A DNA stretch of 64,000 bases, taken from Nonomuraea corallina. Lineage in GTDB: Bacteria > Actinomycetota > Actinomycetes > Streptosporangiales > Streptosporangiaceae. The stretch covers positions 1 through 64,000 of the forward strand of contig NZ_JAPNNL010000017.1 of the NCBI RefSeq assembly GCF_027620315.1. Reading direction: 5' to 3'. Positions 1-5,919 of the stretch are shown piece after piece. Each line of letters starts with the position of its first letter. Position 1 is the stretch's first letter. Both the position numbers and the translations under genes were made by a program. The notes below the pieces were generated by a model. It did no database searches. It worked only from the letters and a program-made list of their open reading frames with translations, and was not told where the DNA came from.

Positions 1-788
1 GTGAGGTACAGAACGAAGCCAAAAAGGGTCGAGAAGGCCTTCTCCGTCAACTTGCGAACGATTACGGAGTTTGGTACGCGGAAGCCTTGACCGTAATCCC
101 ACTCGACCACATCGAGGTTTTCCGCAAGGAATATGAGGGAGGATTTCCGAACTACAAGATCAAGCACTTTCTACAAGCCGGGATCGAGCTCAATAGCATG
201 TTCGCGGAGTTGGCCGCACAGGGCACGATATCCAAATGGTTATACCCGGCCAAAAGCGCATTTCTTGCACCCCTGTCCGAGCAGAAGCAAATCCTACGGA
301 ACGTCGCGGCCCTCGCCGGTGGGCACCCCGGGGTCCTGGCCACACTTGATACCCTCGAAGACGTCTTCCGTAGACTTCCGACCGCGCTGGCCATTCTACG
401 CCAGGACGTCCGCGGACGGCCAGGCATCGCGATCAACGACGAGTACGACCTGCAGAGAGTCGTGCACGCTGTTCTGTGTCTGCACTATCTCGACGTGCGC
501 CCGGAAGAGTATGCCCCAAGCAGGGCAGGCGCTCATCCCCGCCTCGACTTCCTTCTCAAGGACGAGCGGATCGCCGTAGAAACAAAGATGACCCGAAGCA
601 ACCTGGGACCACGGCGACTTGGGGATGAGCTTGCGCAGGACATCCTGCGCTACAGGAAACACGACCATGCAGATGCATATTTCGCGCTCGTATATGATCC
701 GGAGAAGCACATCATCAACGCGTCCGGCTTCGAACGAGACTTCCCCGCAGAAGCTGCGTTCCCGGTTCGAGTTGTGATCATCCAGTAG
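1..788 (+). CDS. C-terminal part of a protein with a DpnII/MboI-type PD-(D/E)XK nuclease domain (5' end outside window)
   Basis: The frame is open to the left edge (in-frame codons from base 3), so the gene starts outside the window; the TTG at 87 is internal. The last ~110 residues resemble the REase_DpnII-MboI domain: an aspartate (RLDFLL, codon near 546) followed by an E-T-K motif near 579-587, the D...ExK arrangement of PD-(D/E)XK nucleases. The rest, with long helical stretches, is not recognised. A rare TTA leucine codon lies at 240-242, and base composition is lower in GC than the core genes to the right, which suggests acquired DNA. The activity is inferred from the motif only; it may belong to a restriction or defence-type protein whose N-terminal domain is not visible. 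Confidence 0.7.
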   Translation, partial: EVQNEAKKGREGLLRQLANDYGVWYAEALTVIPLDHIEVFRKEYEGGFPNYKIKHFLQAGIELNSMFAELAAQGTISKWLYPAKSAFLAPLSEQKQILRNVAALAGGHPGVLATLDTLEDVFRRLPTALAILRQDVRGRPGIAINDEYDLQRVVHAVLCLHYLDVRPEEYAPSRAGAHPRLDFLLKDERIAVETKMTRSNLGPRRLGDELAQDILRYRKHDHADAYFALVYDPEKHIINASGFERDFPAEAAFPVRVVIIQ

Positions 789-964: not shown

Positions 965-1094
965 TCACTCACCGGCCGGCGCGATACCCACCGGACAGGA
1001 GACTCCGATACCACCGATGCCGCAATAGCCGTCAGGCACCTTGAATAGGTACTGCTCGTGGTAGCGCTGCAGTTCGGGCGATAGACGCAGACCC
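965..1094 (-). pseudogene. Fragment of a second msrA: 3' end of peptide methionine sulfoxide reductase
   Basis: Read on the minus strand, this segment encodes [20 protein letters not shown] and continues to a [10 protein letters not shown] ending and a TGA stop at 965-967. It aligns with the last ~35 residues of the intact MsrA at 5154-5813 ([28 protein letters not shown], stop). The catalytic GCFWG part and the rest of the gene are absent, so it is a remnant. The DNA is clearly diverged from the intact copy, so this is not a recent duplication. Both copies point the same way and bracket the Fic/XRE/IS segment. Confidence 0.75.
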
Positions 1095-1126
1095 ACGCCA
1101 TCGAGAGGGGAAGCACCCGCTCACGG

Positions 1127-2176
1127 TCACGACCGGCGATGCCTTGACTTGAGATAGTCATCCACCCACTTCTTGCTACTGCGCCACAGACCGTCGTCCC
1201 CTTTGACCGCACGCAACCGTCCCCGCGCGGCAGCTACTCGAAGTGCGTTCTCGGTCACGCCAGGGGTCGCGAGTGCGGGTAGAGGGACGAGCTTGACAGG
1301 ACCGGCCACCGCCGGCATGACGAAGCGGTACAGATTCGTCGTCACGCTACGGGCGATCAGCTCACCCAGCGGACCGAACTCGTCGCCGTCGGCTCGACGC
1401 ATGGCTTGGAGGTACTTGTCGCGGTCACGTTTGTAGATGATCGCCGGAGGATACCCCGTTCGGCACAGCATCAAGTTGAGCACCAACCGGCCGGTACGTC
1501 CGTTGCCATCTAGAAATGGATGTATCTGTTCGAACCGGTTGTGCAGGCGGGCCAAACGTTCAGGAAGCGCCTCATCCGAATCGACACGAAGGGCGTCGAC
1601 AGCCTTCACCCAGTCCCGCATCTGAGGGTCGACCTCCGGCCACGGCGGCGGCTTCATGCCTCCGGGAAACTTGGCGATCTCGTGCTGGCGGAAATTGCCT
1701 GGCTCTTCGGCAGCGGTCGCATGCGGGTGGGGTGCCACAGCCCAGGCCAGCGACATGGCTGAGTGGTGGATCTGCCGGATCTCCTGGAGAGTGATGAGTT
1801 CGCCGTTCTGCCAGTCTCCCGGCTCCAGCGCCTGCCCATATACCCACTTCGCCGCGTCGCCGTAGCCCTTCACTTCCATGTAATCGCTGAGCGGTTTGGC
1901 GCCGACGGCCCGCCCCTCTTCCAGGAGCTTCTCCACCTCCTGCAGAACAAGGGTGTTGCCTTCGATCGCGGTGCTGTTGTGGACCTCTTGATGCCAGATG
2001 TCGGACCAGATGTCCTCGGCCTCAGCGGGGGACGGAAGACCACCCAGACGGTCACGCAGTTCTCGAACGGCCTCCTCCAAGCGCTGATACACCGTTGCCC
2101 TGGACGGCCTGCCCGGACCTGACACCTGCACCCCCAAGATCTTGTTCGGCTCAGCCAGATTAACTGTACCGAACAA
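1127..2176 (-). CDS. Fic-domain protein (probable AMP-transferase, class II autoinhibited)
   Basis: Fic enzymes transfer AMP or another nucleotide-derived group to target protein hydroxyls. The core motif HPFLDGNGRTGR is at residues ~219-230, with the catalytic His and the phosphate-binding GNGR. Upstream, STAIEGN (residues ~68-74) fits the inhibitory helix motif (S/T)xxxE(G/N), placing it in the N-terminally autoinhibited class, so no separate antitoxin is needed. The last ~50 residues look like a small winged-helix DNA-binding segment (inference). The longest frame starts with TTG at 2176, inside an inverted repeat; a GTG at 2125 preceded by a G-rich stretch is an alternative that would leave the repeats wholly upstream. 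It follows the XRE gene on the same strand with a 59-bp gap. Confidence 0.85.
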   Translation of the reverse strand: MFGTVNLAEPNKILGVQVSGPGRPSRATVYQRLEEAVRELRDRLGGLPSPAEAEDIWSDIWHQEVHNSTAIEGNTLVLQEVEKLLEEGRAVGAKPLSDYMEVKGYGDAAKWVYGQALEPGDWQNGELITLQEIRQIHHSAMSLAWAVAPHPHATAAEEPGNFRQHEIAKFPGGMKPPPWPEVDPQMRDWVKAVDALRVDSDEALPERLARLHNRFEQIHPFLDGNGRTGRLVLNLMLCRTGYPPAIIYKRDRDKYLQAMRRADGDEFGPLGELIARSVTTNLYRFVMPAVAGPVKLVPLPALATPGVTENALRVAAARGRLRAVKGDDGLWRSSKKWVDDYLKSRHRRS

Positions 2177-2223
2177 AATCGATGGTAGTTGTTCGGATCG
2201 GCAAGAATAAGTGAACCGAACAA
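2142..2223. repeat. Four-arm inverted-repeat array (two copies of TTGTTCGG-N19-CCGAACAA)
   Basis: Two units, 2142-2176 and 2189-2223, each have perfect 8-base arms TTGTTCGG and CCGAACAA with exactly 19 bases between, repeating with a 47-bp period. The inner arms form CCGAACAA-N12-TTGTTCGG. Spacers differ in sequence while the arms are identical, as expected of protein-binding sites. The array lies between the XRE gene and fic and reaches the predicted fic start, so it is a likely operator for the XRE regulator or for fic itself. Confidence 0.7.
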
Positions 2224-2235
2224 GACTGCCGTTGA

Positions 2236-2841
2236 TCAGGCATTCGGGTTGTGCACTCGAAGCGGCAGCCGGCTGCGCAGTGCCGCGGCCCAGCCGGTGG
2301 CGCGCAGGCCGAGCTCTTCCCGCCGCATAAGGAAGTTCGCATGCGGAGATCGCGACGCGCGGCCAAGAACACGGCTCGCGAGATCGACCTGCGCCACAGC
2401 GGGCCGGGCGAGTTCACGAGCGGGCGTGACGGCCTCCAACCGCCGCTGGGCGCCAGTGATGCTGGTCAGCGTGGCGGCCGTCGTCTCGTCCACATCCGGA
2501 CGCTTGGGCAGAGCCACCCCCGCCAGCGCGGTCAACGCCACCGCCTTGCCGAAATCTCTGCGCTTCGTCGGATCGTCATCCCCTCGGGCTCCGAACCGGA
2601 GCAAGTGAAGCGGCACCCCGATCTGGATGGATATCTCCCGGACCTGGTCCACGGTGAGCGGCTGACGGCCACGCAACACCTTGGACACCCAGCTCTGGGA
2701 GTAGCCGACCGCCTCAGCCAACTGGCCCTGCGTCCAACCGTTCGCCCGCCGCACCTCTTCGAGGATGGTCGGTAGATCGCACTTGGCGAGAGCGGCGGCC
2801 ACAACTGGCACGGACCAGAACTGCGGCGGTATCTGGGTCAC
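2236..2841 (-). CDS. XRE-family helix-turn-helix regulator, probably truncated
   Basis: Residues ~24-78 form an XRE/HTH_3 domain (WTQGQLAEAVGYSQSWVSKV, then a recognition-helix region and GVPLHLL). The next stretch, RRDFGKAVALTALAGVAL and a segment about GAQRRLEAVTPARELARP, is typical of long actinobacterial XRE regulators that continue into a TPR-like region, usually about 400 residues in total. Here the protein ends at 201 residues with an Arg-rich tail, so the C-terminal sensor region appears lost, perhaps by frameshift. It is transcribed toward fic and ends 12 bp from the inverted-repeat array. Role: probable repressor of fic and/or itself (inference from position). Confidence 0.75.
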   Translation of the reverse strand: MTQIPPQFWSVPVVAAALAKCDLPTILEEVRRANGWTQGQLAEAVGYSQSWVSKVLRGRQPLTVDQVREISIQIGVPLHLLRFGARGDDDPTKRRDFGKAVALTALAGVALPKRPDVDETTAATLTSITGAQRRLEAVTPARELARPAVAQVDLASRVLGRASRSPHANFLMRREELGLRATGWAAALRSRLPLRVHNPNA

Positions 2842-2877
2842 AACGCTAGGTTAAGCCGCCGACCTCGACCGCACCGA

Positions 2878-2894
2878 TATTCGTAACGGGAATA
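2878..2894. promoter_or_regulatory. Possible operator between divergent XRE and small-protein genes
   Basis: TATTC and GAATA flank a 7-base spacer in the 114-bp gap between the XRE gene (minus) and the gene at 2956 (plus). It is a short symmetrical element in the right place for control of both genes, but the match could be chance. Confidence 0.25.
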
Positions 2895-2955
2895 GCCGTA
2901 CCACCAGCAGCACTAGGCCGTTCACCTGCGGTTTCGTGACAGCAACGCTCAGTAC

Positions 2956-3276
2956 ATGAACGCACTGCTGCTTCACCCCCTGGCCGCCGCACAACAACTG
3001 GCCGCCACCCTTGCGGAGGAGGGAATCACTGCCGACGTCCATCACGACTACGGCACGCCCATGGTGTCGGTCTGGGTCGGCCTGATCGTTTGGTGCGCGG
3101 ACGGCACATACTGGTGGCGCACCGGCTGGAACCCACGCAGACACCGACCGATCTACGCAAGACACCCCTTCACCCAGCCGACCCGCGCCGCCCGCCGAGT
3201 CGCCCTCCGCTACACGCAACTGCGCATGTCGCATCCGCTCTCGCCACTGATCGCCGGAGCACAGCCGTGCCCCTGA
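2956..3276 (+). CDS. Small conserved-looking protein of unknown function (106 aa)
   Basis: Starts with ATG and is divergent from the XRE gene. It has a helical N-terminus (LAAAQQLAATLAEEG), a middle rich in Trp and Tyr (VSVWVGLIVWCADGTYWWRT) and a basic C-terminal half with RRHRP and AARRVALRY. No signal peptide or known motif is seen. Its end overlaps the next gene by 10 bases, suggesting co-translation. Divergent pairs of an XRE regulator and one or two small proteins like this are common in actinomycetes; the function is not known to me. Confidence 0.6.
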   Translation: MNALLLHPLAAAQQLAATLAEEGITADVHHDYGTPMVSVWVGLIVWCADGTYWWRTGWNPRRHRPIYARHPFTQPTRAARRVALRYTQLRMSHPLSPLIAGAQPCP

Positions 3277-3506
3277 CCGTGCAGCAAGTGCTCAACAGAT
3301 TCCCCGGCTGGCAGATCACCGACATGTCTGGAGGCTGGGTCGCCATGCGAGTCAACTTCATGCCCAAGATCAGCGGACTCTCCAATGTACGTTGCGGAGA
3401 AACGTTGGAGGAACTGGCCGGCAATCTACACGCCGAGATCAGGCTCCAGAGGTCACGGACACCTCTTGCGCGGGTCTGTCCAGTCTTCGGTGTAACTGAT
3501 TTCTGA
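3267..3506 (+). CDS. Small protein of unknown function with 3' end replaced by an IS element
   Basis: The GTG at 3267 overlaps the end of the preceding gene and opens a 79-codon frame. The first ~68 residues (start MPLTVQQVLNRFPGWQITD, a WVAMR segment, then LEELAGNLHAEIRLQ) read as a compact domain. The IS256 element begins at 3472, so the last 11 codons and the stop come from the IS terminal repeat. The original C-terminus is therefore lost. It may still make a product, but it is best seen as an interrupted gene. Function is not recognised. Confidence 0.55.
   Translation: MPLTVQQVLNRFPGWQITDMSGGWVAMRVNFMPKISGLSNVRCGETLEELAGNLHAEIRLQRSRTPLARVCPVFGVTDF
3472..3497. repeat. Left terminal inverted repeat of the IS256 element
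   Basis: Twenty-six bases starting GGGTCT and ending CGGTGTAACT; the inverted partner is at 4857-4882. It supplies the last codons of the interrupted small gene at 3267-3506. Confidence 0.75.
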
Positions 3507-3511
3507 TGGTT

Positions 3512-4810
3512 CTATCGGCGGGCGGCGGACAGGCGGCCTTCGAAGGCGATCTCGAAGGCGTTCAGAGCGGGCTTCCAGCGGGTGATCCAGCGTTTCTGGC
3601 CCGTGCCGGTGGGGTCGAGGCTCATGATCGCCAGGTAGACGCATTTGAGGGCGGCCTGCTCGTTGGGGAAGTGTCCGCGCGCGCGGACGGCCTTGCGGAT
3701 GCGGGCATTGACGCTTTCGATGGCATTCGTACTGCACACGACGCGTCTGATCTCCGGGTCGAACTGCAGGAACGGCACGAACTCGGCCCAGCTGTTCTCC
3801 CACAGCTTGACGATCGCGGGATACCTGTCGCCCCATGCCTCGCAGAACTCCAGGAAGCGGTCCTCGGCCGCGTCGGCGGTGGGGGCGGTGTAGACCGGCT
3901 TGAGCGCCCTGGCGATGGCGTCCCAGTGCTGGCGGGCGGCGTAGCGGAAGCTACCGCGCAGCAGATGGATCACACACGTCTGGGTCAGCGCCCGCGGCCA
4001 GACCGTCTCGATCGCGTCCGGCAGGCCCTTCAGCCCGTCGCAGACGACCATGCACGCATCGGCCACGCCCCGATTCTTGATCTCGGTGAGCACCTGCAGC
4101 CAGTACTTGGCGCCCTCGCCGCCGTCGCCGGTCCACAGCCCCAGGATGTCGCGCTTACCCTCACAGGTGACGGCCAGGGCGACGTAGATGGGCCGGTTCG
4201 CGACATGCCCGTCGCGGATCTTCACGTTGATCGCGTCGATGAAGATCACCGGATAGACCGCATCCAGCGGCCGGTTCTGCCACTCGGTCATGCCCTCCAT
4301 CACCCGGTCGGTGATCGCGGAGATCGTCTGCTTCGACACGTTCGCGCCGTATACCTCGGCCAGGTGCGCACTGATCTCGCCGTGGGTGAGCCCCTTGGCC
4401 GACAGCGACAGCACCATCTCATCGACCCCGGACAGGCGCCGCTGCCGCTTCTTGACCAGCTGCGGCTCGAAGCTGGCATCGCGGTCGCGGGGCACCGTGA
4501 GCTCGACCGGCCCGACCTCGGTGATCACCGTCTTGGCCCGCCGACCGTTACGCGAATTGCCCGAGTTGTCCCCGCTCGCATCGTGCTTGGCATAGCCCAG
4601 GTGGGCGTCCATCTCGCCCTCCAGCGCCGACTCCAGGAAAATCTTGGTCAGCTGCCGCAGCAGCCCGCCCTCACCGCTCAGCTCCAGACCCTGGCCACGC
4701 GCTTGATCGGCCAGCCGCCGCAGCAACTGCACATCCAACGCGCCGACCTCGCCAGCCGGTGCCGATCCGGCCGCCGGCTCGGCTGCCTCCTCGATCGTCA
4801 TCTCATTCAT
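3512..4810 (-). CDS. IS256-family transposase (Mutator-type DDE)
   Basis: Catalyses cut/copy transposition of the surrounding element. The DDE residues are visible: D192 in PVIFIDAINVKI, D258 in MVVCDGLKGLPDAI, and E365 in NAIESVNARIRKAV, followed by the characteristic RGHFPNEQAALK block. The N-terminal part has the family's FLESALEGEMDAHLGY segment. I chose the ATG at 4810 because AAGGAG lies 9 bases upstream; a longer frame from 4837 lacks a better site. The length of 432 residues is normal and the frame is intact, so the element may be active. Confidence 0.92.
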   Translation of the reverse strand: MNEMTIEEAAEPAAGSAPAGEVGALDVQLLRRLADQARGQGLELSGEGGLLRQLTKIFLESALEGEMDAHLGYAKHDASGDNSGNSRNGRRAKTVITEVGPVELTVPRDRDASFEPQLVKKRQRRLSGVDEMVLSLSAKGLTHGEISAHLAEVYGANVSKQTISAITDRVMEGMTEWQNRPLDAVYPVIFIDAINVKIRDGHVANRPIYVALAVTCEGKRDILGLWTGDGGEGAKYWLQVLTEIKNRGVADACMVVCDGLKGLPDAIETVWPRALTQTCVIHLLRGSFRYAARQHWDAIARALKPVYTAPTADAAEDRFLEFCEAWGDRYPAIVKLWENSWAEFVPFLQFDPEIRRVVCSTNAIESVNARIRKAVRARGHFPNEQAALKCVYLAIMSLDPTGTGQKRWITRWKPALNAFEIAFEGRLSAARR

Positions 4811-4856
4811 CGGGGGTGTCTCCTTCCGGAGGAACATCAGTCCCTCACGTCTCCGG

Positions 4857-5153: not shown

Positions 5154-5813
<660 letters not shown>

Positions 5814-5832
5814 CGCACACCTCCGCAGTCCC

Positions 5833-5860
5833 ACTCTACAGACGGTGTAACCGTTAACAA
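5833..5860 (-). promoter_or_regulatory. Predicted vegetative promoter of msrA
   Basis: On the minus strand TTGTTA (5855-5860) and TAGAGT (5833-5838) are 16 bases apart, close to the main sigma factor consensus. Transcription would start near 5826, leaving a short leader with the GGAGG site. Confidence 0.5.
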
Positions 5861-5919
5861 ACGCTACACATTTCCGTGAAGAAACCCGCATTTGTGTTTA
5901 AAGGTGGTCATGCCCGAAG

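What the first reader, a model, noticed from the sequence alone, without database searches (positions are those of the whole stretch)
2142..2223. Four-arm operator array linking a truncated XRE regulator and a Fic enzyme
TTGTTCGG and CCGAACAA alternate four times: N19, N12, N19 between arms, 47-bp period, with perfect arms and unrelated spacers. Seen directly. Such strict geometry suggests cooperative binding of two dimers on the same face turn after turn. One unit overlaps the long-frame fic start, so either binding blocks translation-start DNA or the true start is downstream (GTG 2125). A class II (self-inhibited) Fic with a dedicated multi-site switch is not a standard toxin-antitoxin layout.
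Basis: partly seen in the sequence, partly recalled or inferred. Interest (0 to 1): 0.7.

Follow-up and report, generated by a model that had tools for sequence, protein, structure and literature searches.

The report
Self-regulating toxin gene's paired DNA switch
Two copies of a paired DNA signal sit just in front of a Fic toxin-like enzyme gene in a soil bacterium; comparison with relatives suggests that the enzyme itself reads the signal to keep its own gene quiet, and that the neighbouring regulator gene is only a broken leftover.

Summary
The array is real: four 8-bp arms, N19/N12/N19, two 35-bp units 47 bp apart, the only such pair in the 7.56-Mb genome (a Nonomuraea). It belongs to fic, not to the XRE gene. 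Both units stand at the same place before all nine intact fic relatives of 90-93% identity found in the family and before a 74% relative in Actinoplanes. In a scan of 84,980 genomes all 8 arrays with two units 46-47 bp apart abut fic. Fic relatives of 56-66% carry an inverted repeat there with different arms (35 of 42 rows significant). The XRE gene is a fragment of a ~416-aa regulator cut at 2338/2339 and was not found beside the other fic loci searched.

Best reading: an autorepressor operator bound by Fic's own C-terminal excisionase/HTH_17-like domain, as shown experimentally for CccR, another class II Fic. True start: GTG 2125. New here: the tandem 46-47-bp double operator, its spread through the phylum, and arms that vary with Fic clade.

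Side finding: this fic looks like a cassette in arrays bounded by copies of the msrA 3' end, mixed with toxin-antitoxin-like genes; the boundary motif is in 47 of 345 genomes of the order. Binding, promoter and recombinase remain unshown.

The parts
2189..2223 (-). distal operator unit: TTGTTCGG-N19-CCGAACAA, core GTTC..TT beside the 5' arm
   Evidence: a distal unit with right arm CGAACAA stands in all nine intact close relatives
2142..2176 (-). proximal operator unit: TTGTTCGG-N19-CCGAACAA, core GTACAGTTA beside the 5' arm; 16 bp before the fic start codon
   Evidence: present in all nine intact close relatives (L016 has one changed arm base)
1127..2125 (-). fic: class II Fic enzyme, 332 aa, start GTG 2125, ribosome-binding-like GGGGG at 2131-2135
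   Evidence: PF02661 9.3e-18; ATG in place of GTG in L021 and L039; sequence
1958..1975 (-). inhibitory motif STAIEG (residues 51-56), N-terminal to the Fic motif, i.e. class II
   Evidence: fits (S/T)xxxE(G/N) as written in PMC9755527; A53 and G56 invariant, S51, T52, E55 nearly so among 25 relatives
1487..1522 (-). Fic motif HPFLDGNGRTGR (residues 202-213), intact
   Evidence: sequence
1130..1300 (-). C-terminal domain (about residues 276-332), excisionase/HTH_17-like; proposed DNA-binding part
   Evidence: at E up to 0.5, 5 of 18 homologous domains match HTH_17 (best 1.6e-4) and 3 of 18 TIGR01764 (best 9.4e-4); the window's own copy matches none
2236..2841 (-). truncated XRE ORF; homology to intact regulators stops at 2339; not a part of the switch
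965..1086 (-). copy of the msrA 3' end with a cassette-type leader, 40 bp after the fic stop; proposed boundary of the fic cassette
   Evidence: its leader is too divergent for the pattern
5154..5891 (-). msrA, proposed anchor gene of the cassette array
   Evidence: PF01625 7e-62
3512..4837 (-). IS256-family transposase, lying with the XRE fragment between msrA and fic

Best explanation
The array is the operator of a self-repressing fic gene. The Fic protein is a class II (self-inhibited) Fic enzyme whose C-terminal excisionase/HTH_17-like domain most likely binds the arms; a Fic dimer would bridge the two arms of one unit (28 bp centre to centre of the 7-bp half-sites), and two dimers would fill the tandem units 47 bp apart, covering -98 to -17 before the start codon and shutting off transcription when Fic is plentiful. 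SHOWN here: position, conservation, association with fic and not with the XRE gene, arms that differ between Fic clades with the layout kept. INFERRED: that Fic is the binding protein, that binding represses, where the promoter lies, and that the enzyme is active and toxic.
For: (1) The window and all nine intact relatives at 90-93% carry both units at the same place, period 46 or 47, although the DNA upstream of the array does not align. (2) Of 86 exact single-unit matches in genome contigs, the 8 with a second unit (at most one changed arm base) 46-47 bp away are all at a fic start: 6 by tblastn, 2 with the first 11 fic codons at a contig edge. (3) No other copy of the paired motif in the genome, so no visible regulon. 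(4) Relatives of 56-66% identity in order, class and phylum have an inverted repeat in the frame TTG-N4-GTNC with other N4; of 42 rows (all clades, two genomes twice) 31 beat all 60 shuffles and 4 have p 0.033-0.049. L133 has its own tandem pair, period 46, with other arms. (5) Arm distance correlates with recognition-helix distance after allowing for the rest of the protein: partial r 0.36, permutation p 0.0002, 22 representatives. (6) Some of the C-terminal domains match HTH_17/excisionase models. (7) Precedent: CccR, a class II Fic with C-terminal HTH, represses its own promoter by binding AGATAATCAT-N26-ATGATAATCT (reporter, EMSA, footprint, ITC; PMC9755527).
Against: No binding data. In the covariation scan the helix windows rank 4th and 5th of 62; windows 256-275, 251-270 and 6-25 score higher, and the rest of the protein also correlates with the arms once the helix is allowed for (r 0.20, p 0.03), so shared ancestry is not excluded; four half-sites in that test were set by hand. 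L138 has an A-type right arm with a C-type helix. 7 of 42 rows show no significant repeat: all three homologues near 41-42% identity (L038, L147, L148) and four at 61-63% (L131, L134, L139, L140); in L133 and L141 the pair that the script found is not the repeat seen by eye. The window's own C-terminal domain matches no HTH family by itself, and both structure predictions were of low confidence. No sigma-70-like promoter was found. Spacing differs from CccR.
Confidence: 0.72

Rival explanations
1. The arms are bound by an unlinked, host-encoded regulator that controls fic.
For: No binding data exclude it; the C-terminal domain of the window's protein alone has no HTH match.
Against: The paired motif occurs nowhere else in the genome, and the 8 double arrays found in genome contigs are all at fic; arms differ between Fic clades; the array follows fic across genera and into Actinoplanes.
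Confidence: 0.13
2. The repeats act in the mRNA: hairpins in the fic leader control translation or transcript end.
For: The proximal unit folds very well as RNA (43 nt, -22.8 kcal/mol, z -6.6), as does the L076 array (z -7.2); the unit ends 6 nt before the GGGGG run.
Against: Of 18 left/right differences in 18 distinct half-site pairs, 4 would be G-U pairs in RNA, close to the 1 in 6 that I would expect by chance; three of these 4 come from hand-set half-sites. The core GTNC..TT lies on one side only; no Rfam match; no terminator-like site; L132 folds at z -1.7 only.
Confidence: 0.08
3. The XRE regulator upstream binds the array.
For: It is the adjacent upstream gene in the window.
Against: It is a truncated copy; intact homologues occur in genomes without any unit (for example G001, G019, G020, G022, G047); none was found beside other arrays.
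Confidence: 0.02
4. The array is a recombination site of the cassette rather than an operator.
For: This fic looks like a cassette, and the relic in L006/L163 keeps the array and loses fic from just after it.
Against: Five loci of other Fic clades without an msrA-end copy within 450 bp after fic also carry the repeat; the msrA-end boundary is a different sequence.
Confidence: 0.05

Closest known systems
CccR of Yersinia pseudotuberculosis (PMC9755527; section 9 and part 1 of section 10 read, other passages seen)
   Same: Class II Fic with N-terminal inhibitory motif and C-terminal HTH domain that represses its own promoter through widely spaced inverted repeats.
   Different: Arms AGATAATCAT with N26, one pair; here TTGTTCGG with N19, two pairs 47 bp apart. 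CccR is a secreted T6SS effector; no sign of that was sought here. The C-terminal domain here resembles excisionase/HTH_17 models; similarity to chain 7xux (380 aa, presumed by length to be CccR) covers the Fic part only.
SoFic / EcSofic anti-phage Fic (PMC12249575; abstract, Results and Discussion read)
   Same: Class II Fic with a C-terminal domain; PADLOC SoFic model matches residues 28-262 of the 349-aa frame (2e-27).
   Different: The PADLOC match leaves out the C-terminal domain; NCBIfam SoFic equivalog score 33 against a cut-off of 550. EcSofic has a small antitoxin gene AS1 downstream; here an msrA-end copy begins 40 bp after fic. No operator is described in the sections read.
CbFic2 of Coxiella burnetii (PMC10628234; passages seen)
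   Same: Fic with C-terminal HTH whose DNA binding affects enzyme activity.
   Different: Bound random DNA with high affinity in that study; DUF4172 N-terminus; no promoter operator in the passages seen.
Chromosomal integron cassette arrays (recalled; search listing only)
   Same: Tandem small cassettes, many with toxin-antitoxin genes, each ending in a conserved site.
   Different: The site here is the 3' coding end of msrA with a ~25-bp leader; no integrase stood out by eye among the cassette ORFs listed, not tested with a profile.

Membership tests
Class II Fic enzyme | Fic motif HPFx(D/E)GN(G/K)R | tested here: met
   HPFLDGNGR at residues 202-210; PF02661 9.3e-18; motif as given in the abstract of PMC2686095 (listing)
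Class II Fic enzyme | inhibitory motif (S/T)xxxE(G/N) N-terminal to the Fic motif | tested here: met
   STAIEG at residues 51-56
Class II Fic enzyme | AMP-transferase activity | not testable with these tools
   needs an assay
Autoregulated Fic (CccR type) | C-terminal DNA-binding HTH domain | tested here: inconclusive
   at E up to 0.5, 5 of 18 homologous domains match HTH_17 and 3 of 18 TIGR01764; the window's own matches none; structure models poor
Autoregulated Fic (CccR type) | widely spaced inverted repeats immediately upstream of fic | tested here: met
Autoregulated Fic (CccR type) | protein binds the repeats and represses | not testable with these tools
   needs gel shift, footprint, reporter
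SoFic (NCBIfam equivalog NF046030) | score above the curated cut-off | tested here: not met
   33.1 bits, cut-off 550
Type II toxin-antitoxin pair (XRE + Fic) | conserved adjacent two-gene unit | tested here: not met
   this XRE protein was found beside fic in the window only, not in 54 other fic-locus stretches; it is truncated

The most novel reading that the evidence does not exclude
The Fic gene with its paired operator is a complete one-gene toxin module (toxin, built-in inhibitor and repressor in one polypeptide) that travels as a cassette. In Streptosporangiaceae such cassettes, mixed with toxin-antitoxin cassettes, stand in tandem behind msrA, each closed by a ~120-bp copy of the msrA 3' end with its own conserved leader: an integron-like capture system, anchored on a protein-coding gene, whose recombinase is unknown.
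Probability: 0.45. Interest if true: 0.82.

Novelty: new variant of a known kind. Interest (0 to 1): 0.58.

Why it matters
A Fic toxin that carries its own inhibitor and reads its own operator would need no partner antitoxin or host regulator, which would explain how it can sit in many genera as one gene. Because the arms differ between Fic clades while the frame stays, the family offers a natural set for learning how a small winged-helix-like domain picks its site. One experimental case of Fic autorepression was found in the papers searched (CccR); this would make it a general property of a large actinobacterial group. The msrA-bounded cassette arrays seen on the way would, if real, be a way of stockpiling toxin-antitoxin and defence genes that I did not find described.

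Tried and rejected
XRE as binding protein: rejected. Chance: rejected. RNA element: kept as a rival; Rfam gave nothing for 1000-3600 and wobble counts did not favour it. Same-face phasing: rejected by arithmetic. Terminator or sigma-70 promoter at 2000-2450: none found. Phage or plasmid carriage: no match to six peptide patterns in viral contigs; plasmids 420 records and phages 31 records, all under 60% identity. AlphaFold of the whole protein (pLDDT 46) and of the C-terminal 65 residues (pLDDT 62, no wing) were too poor to search. In the PDB profile search of the C-terminal domain the best hit was 4o60, an ANK-named protein with repeat matches (0.043), the second 4j2n (0.24).

Literature: 1,082 papers hold one of the two arm strings; the 20 listed are on unrelated subjects by title and none was opened. 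For Fic autoregulation: (at least 4 of 5 terms) 3 papers; (3 of 5) 334, 20 listed; (3 of 5) 147, 15 listed; (2 of 3) 84, 10 listed; (4 of 5) only CccR. For msrA-anchored cassettes: 161 papers, 10 listed; 105 papers, 12 listed; no listed title fitted. All cover open-licence PMC papers only.

Rows dropped: one search used loci aligned from residue 8 or earlier over more than 300 residues (42 rows; L045 and L118 are the genomes of L018 and L017 again); partial genes L034-L037, L039-L041, L080, L129, L137, L144-L146 and L049, L084 (repeats of other genomes) were not in it. One search dropped L038, L139, L140, L147, L148; half-sites of L131, L133, L134, L141 were set by hand. The scoring frame was designed after seeing the sequences, so its p-values are optimistic. 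One search left out decayed msrA-end copies without CCAGCA/CGAGCA.

Full report
OBSERVATION. TTGTTCGG occurs nowhere else in the window; shuffles give 0.85 copies on average. In the 7.56-Mb genome the paired motif with any spacer of 8 to 30 occurs only here. Read in the fic direction the two units agree at 29 of 35 positions and the spacers at 13 of 19, so the array is a duplicated 35-bp site rather than four arms with unrelated spacers.

THE GENE IT SERVES. The gene after the array is a 332-aa Fic protein (PF02661, 9.3e-18) with an intact Fic motif and the N-terminal inhibitory motif STAIEG, hence class II. The start is GTG 2125: L021 and L039 have ATG at that codon, and a GGGGG run lies at 2131-2135. 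The array therefore covers -98 to -17 before the start, and the longer frame from TTG 2176 is probably not the gene.

THE XRE GENE IS DEBRIS. The 201-aa XRE ORF matches the first ~173-185 residues of proteins with open frames of mostly about 416 aa in other Nonomuraea (21 of 53 genomes searched have a match, own genome included). For six of those loci the DNA was compared: in five, 86-94% identity runs from window 2339-2342 to 3454-3464; in the sixth a 78% match covers 2411-2935. The fragment thus breaks off at 2338/2339, and an IS256 transposase follows at 3512-4837. In 54 other fic-locus stretches no homologue of this XRE protein was found at E 0.001. Genomes G001, G019, G020, G022 and G047 have an XRE homologue in an open frame of 416 aa and no unit with up to one mismatch.

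CONSERVATION OF THE ARRAY. In 297 genomes of the family 30 have a Fic match at E 1e-40 or better. The window and all nine intact relatives at 90-93% identity carry both units, period 46 or 47, while the DNA upstream does not align. In all nine relatives the distal right arm is CGAACAA preceded by another base than C. A scan of genome contigs for the exact unit gave 86 stretches. Eight have a second unit 46-47 bp away with at most one changed arm base: L045, L060, L076, L080, L084, L118 have fic right after it, and L056 and L072 end at the contig edge inside the first codons of fic. L076 is Actinoplanes solisilvae with a 74% Fic. L049 has one unit and a fic start; L061 and L093 are units without a whole fic gene. 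The other 75 show no fic match at 1e-5 and no second unit at this distance.

OTHER FIC CLADES. Relatives of 56-66% identity in the order, class and phylum carry an inverted repeat at the same place but with other arms: TTGATAA, TTGTTGY, TTGCGTC and others in place of TTGTTCG, mostly followed on the 5' side by a core like GTWCAATTA. A search in the frame TTG-N4-GTNC..TT with a matching right half gave, for 42 rows, 31 that beat all 60 shuffles, 4 at p 0.033-0.049 and 7 that failed, including all three near 41-42% identity. The outer length is 35-37 bp in 33 of the 35 significant rows (L143 has 32; in L133 the pair found is not the repeat). L133 has a tandem pair of left half-sites with period 46, L130 one with period 56. 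Twelve proximal and twelve distal clade-A units, some from broken genes, give the consensus TTGTTCGGTACagTTA..tcg.ctcAGCCGAACAA and TTGTTCGGTTcg.TT..TT..gc.gag.CGAACAA.

WHO BINDS. The C-terminal domain of these Fic proteins looks like an excisionase/HTH_17 winged helix: at E up to 0.5, 5 of 18 domains match HTH_17 (best 1.6e-4) and 3 of 18 TIGR01764 (best 9.4e-4). The profile's second-best PDB chain is 4j2n, Gp37 (E 0.24), which I recall as a phage excisionase. The window's own domain matches nothing by itself. Arm differences follow recognition-helix differences beyond the rest of the protein (partial r 0.36, p 0.0002, 22 representatives), but three other windows score higher and the rest of the protein keeps some correlation of its own (r 0.20, p 0.03), so this is moderate support. 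The closest experiment is CccR: a class II Fic with C-terminal HTH that binds AGATAATCAT-N26-ATGATAATCT before its own gene and represses it, as a dimer (PMC9755527, section 9 and part of 10). I take autorepression by Fic as the most likely mechanism (0.72).

RNA ALTERNATIVE. The proximal unit is a strong hairpin as RNA (z -6.6), so an mRNA role is not excluded. Left/right differences are G-U compatible in 4 of 18 cases, about what I would expect by chance, and the one-sided core argues for DNA.

CASSETTE CONTEXT (found on the way). A copy of the msrA 3' end lies at 965-1086, 40 bp after the fic stop, and msrA itself (PF01625, 7e-62) at 5154-5891. Such copies recur in tandem in relatives; 14 stretches were examined, 11 of them (window included) with msrA in the stretch. 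Of 29 detached copies aligned, nearly all share a leader of about 25 bp, TATTGCctgargYgaagcgCTACC, that the 11 msrA ends lack, then the msrA codons from ACCAGCA on; two copies in L190 lack the leader, and decayed copies were left out. Between copies lie stretches of 0.6-7 kb. Of 10 proteins from them, 7 match a Pfam family at 0.001; four pass the curated cut-off (ParE toxin, Gp49-like, PIN, HTH_3 with IrrE-like peptidase) and three fall short of it (PhdYefM antitoxin, DUF3368, DUF6247). An msrA-end copy clearly follows fic in 6 of 12 clade-A loci (window included) and weakly in 2 more; not in the other 4, and in 0 of 5 loci of other clades. The tail pattern, which can also hit msrA itself, is in 40 of 53 genus genomes, 16 with two or more matches. 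With the leader it is in 47 of 345 genomes of the order, 9 of 70 genera; the window's own copy is too divergent to be among them; the reversed control pattern matched in none. No integrase stands out by eye among the cassette ORFs listed; this was not tested with a profile. The pattern suggests site-specific capture at the end of msrA, and would favour a fic gene that brings its own operator.

PRECEDENTS CHECKED. EcSofic is a toxic class II Fic in anti-phage defence, with antitoxin AS1 (PMC12249575). CbFic2 binds DNA by a C-terminal HTH (PMC10628234, passages). A 2026 review mentions CccR's self-repression and no other Fic operator in the passages seen (PMC12894286). The listings showed no report of this operator; they cover open-licence PMC papers only.

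VERDICT. A real, conserved regulatory site of fic, most likely an autorepressor operator: new variant of a known kind. Binding, promoter and toxicity remain to be shown.

Noticed in passing
window 965-1086 (-), 5154-5891 (-); L185-L194, L151, L049, L154: Tandem copies of the msrA 3' coding end, nearly all with a shared ~25-bp leader that msrA lacks, separate small modules with toxin-antitoxin-like genes: an integron-like array in Streptosporangiaceae (leader motif in 47 of 345 genomes of the order, not counting the window's divergent copy).
   Followed up: partly
L006 1452-1576 (same place in L163); L008 1501-1535; L061 3124-3206: Relics: array or part of it without a fic gene; in L006 the array runs into the last ~15 codons of fic.
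   Followed up: partly
L035, L036, L037, L039, L041: Partial matches to close fic copies (76-93% identity over 95-187 residues) are common in the family, as if the gene were often broken; contig ends and frames were not checked one by one.
   Followed up: no
window 3-788 (+): DpnII/MboI-type restriction-enzyme domain (PF18742, 1.3e-33; PADLOC Aga_Helical-REase 5.2e-20) lies beyond the msrA-end copy, open at the window edge.
   Followed up: no
fic residues 5-9, window 2099-2113: Well conserved N-terminal GRPSR (R6 invariant, G5 and R9 nearly so in 25 relatives), reminiscent (recalled) of an AT-hook; window 6-25 is among the three best covarying with the arms.
   Followed up: no
L034 upstream of the aligned part: TTGGTATGTTCAATTA...GTACCAA before a fic of 64% identity: a further arm variant in the same frame, seen by eye and not counted.
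   Followed up: no
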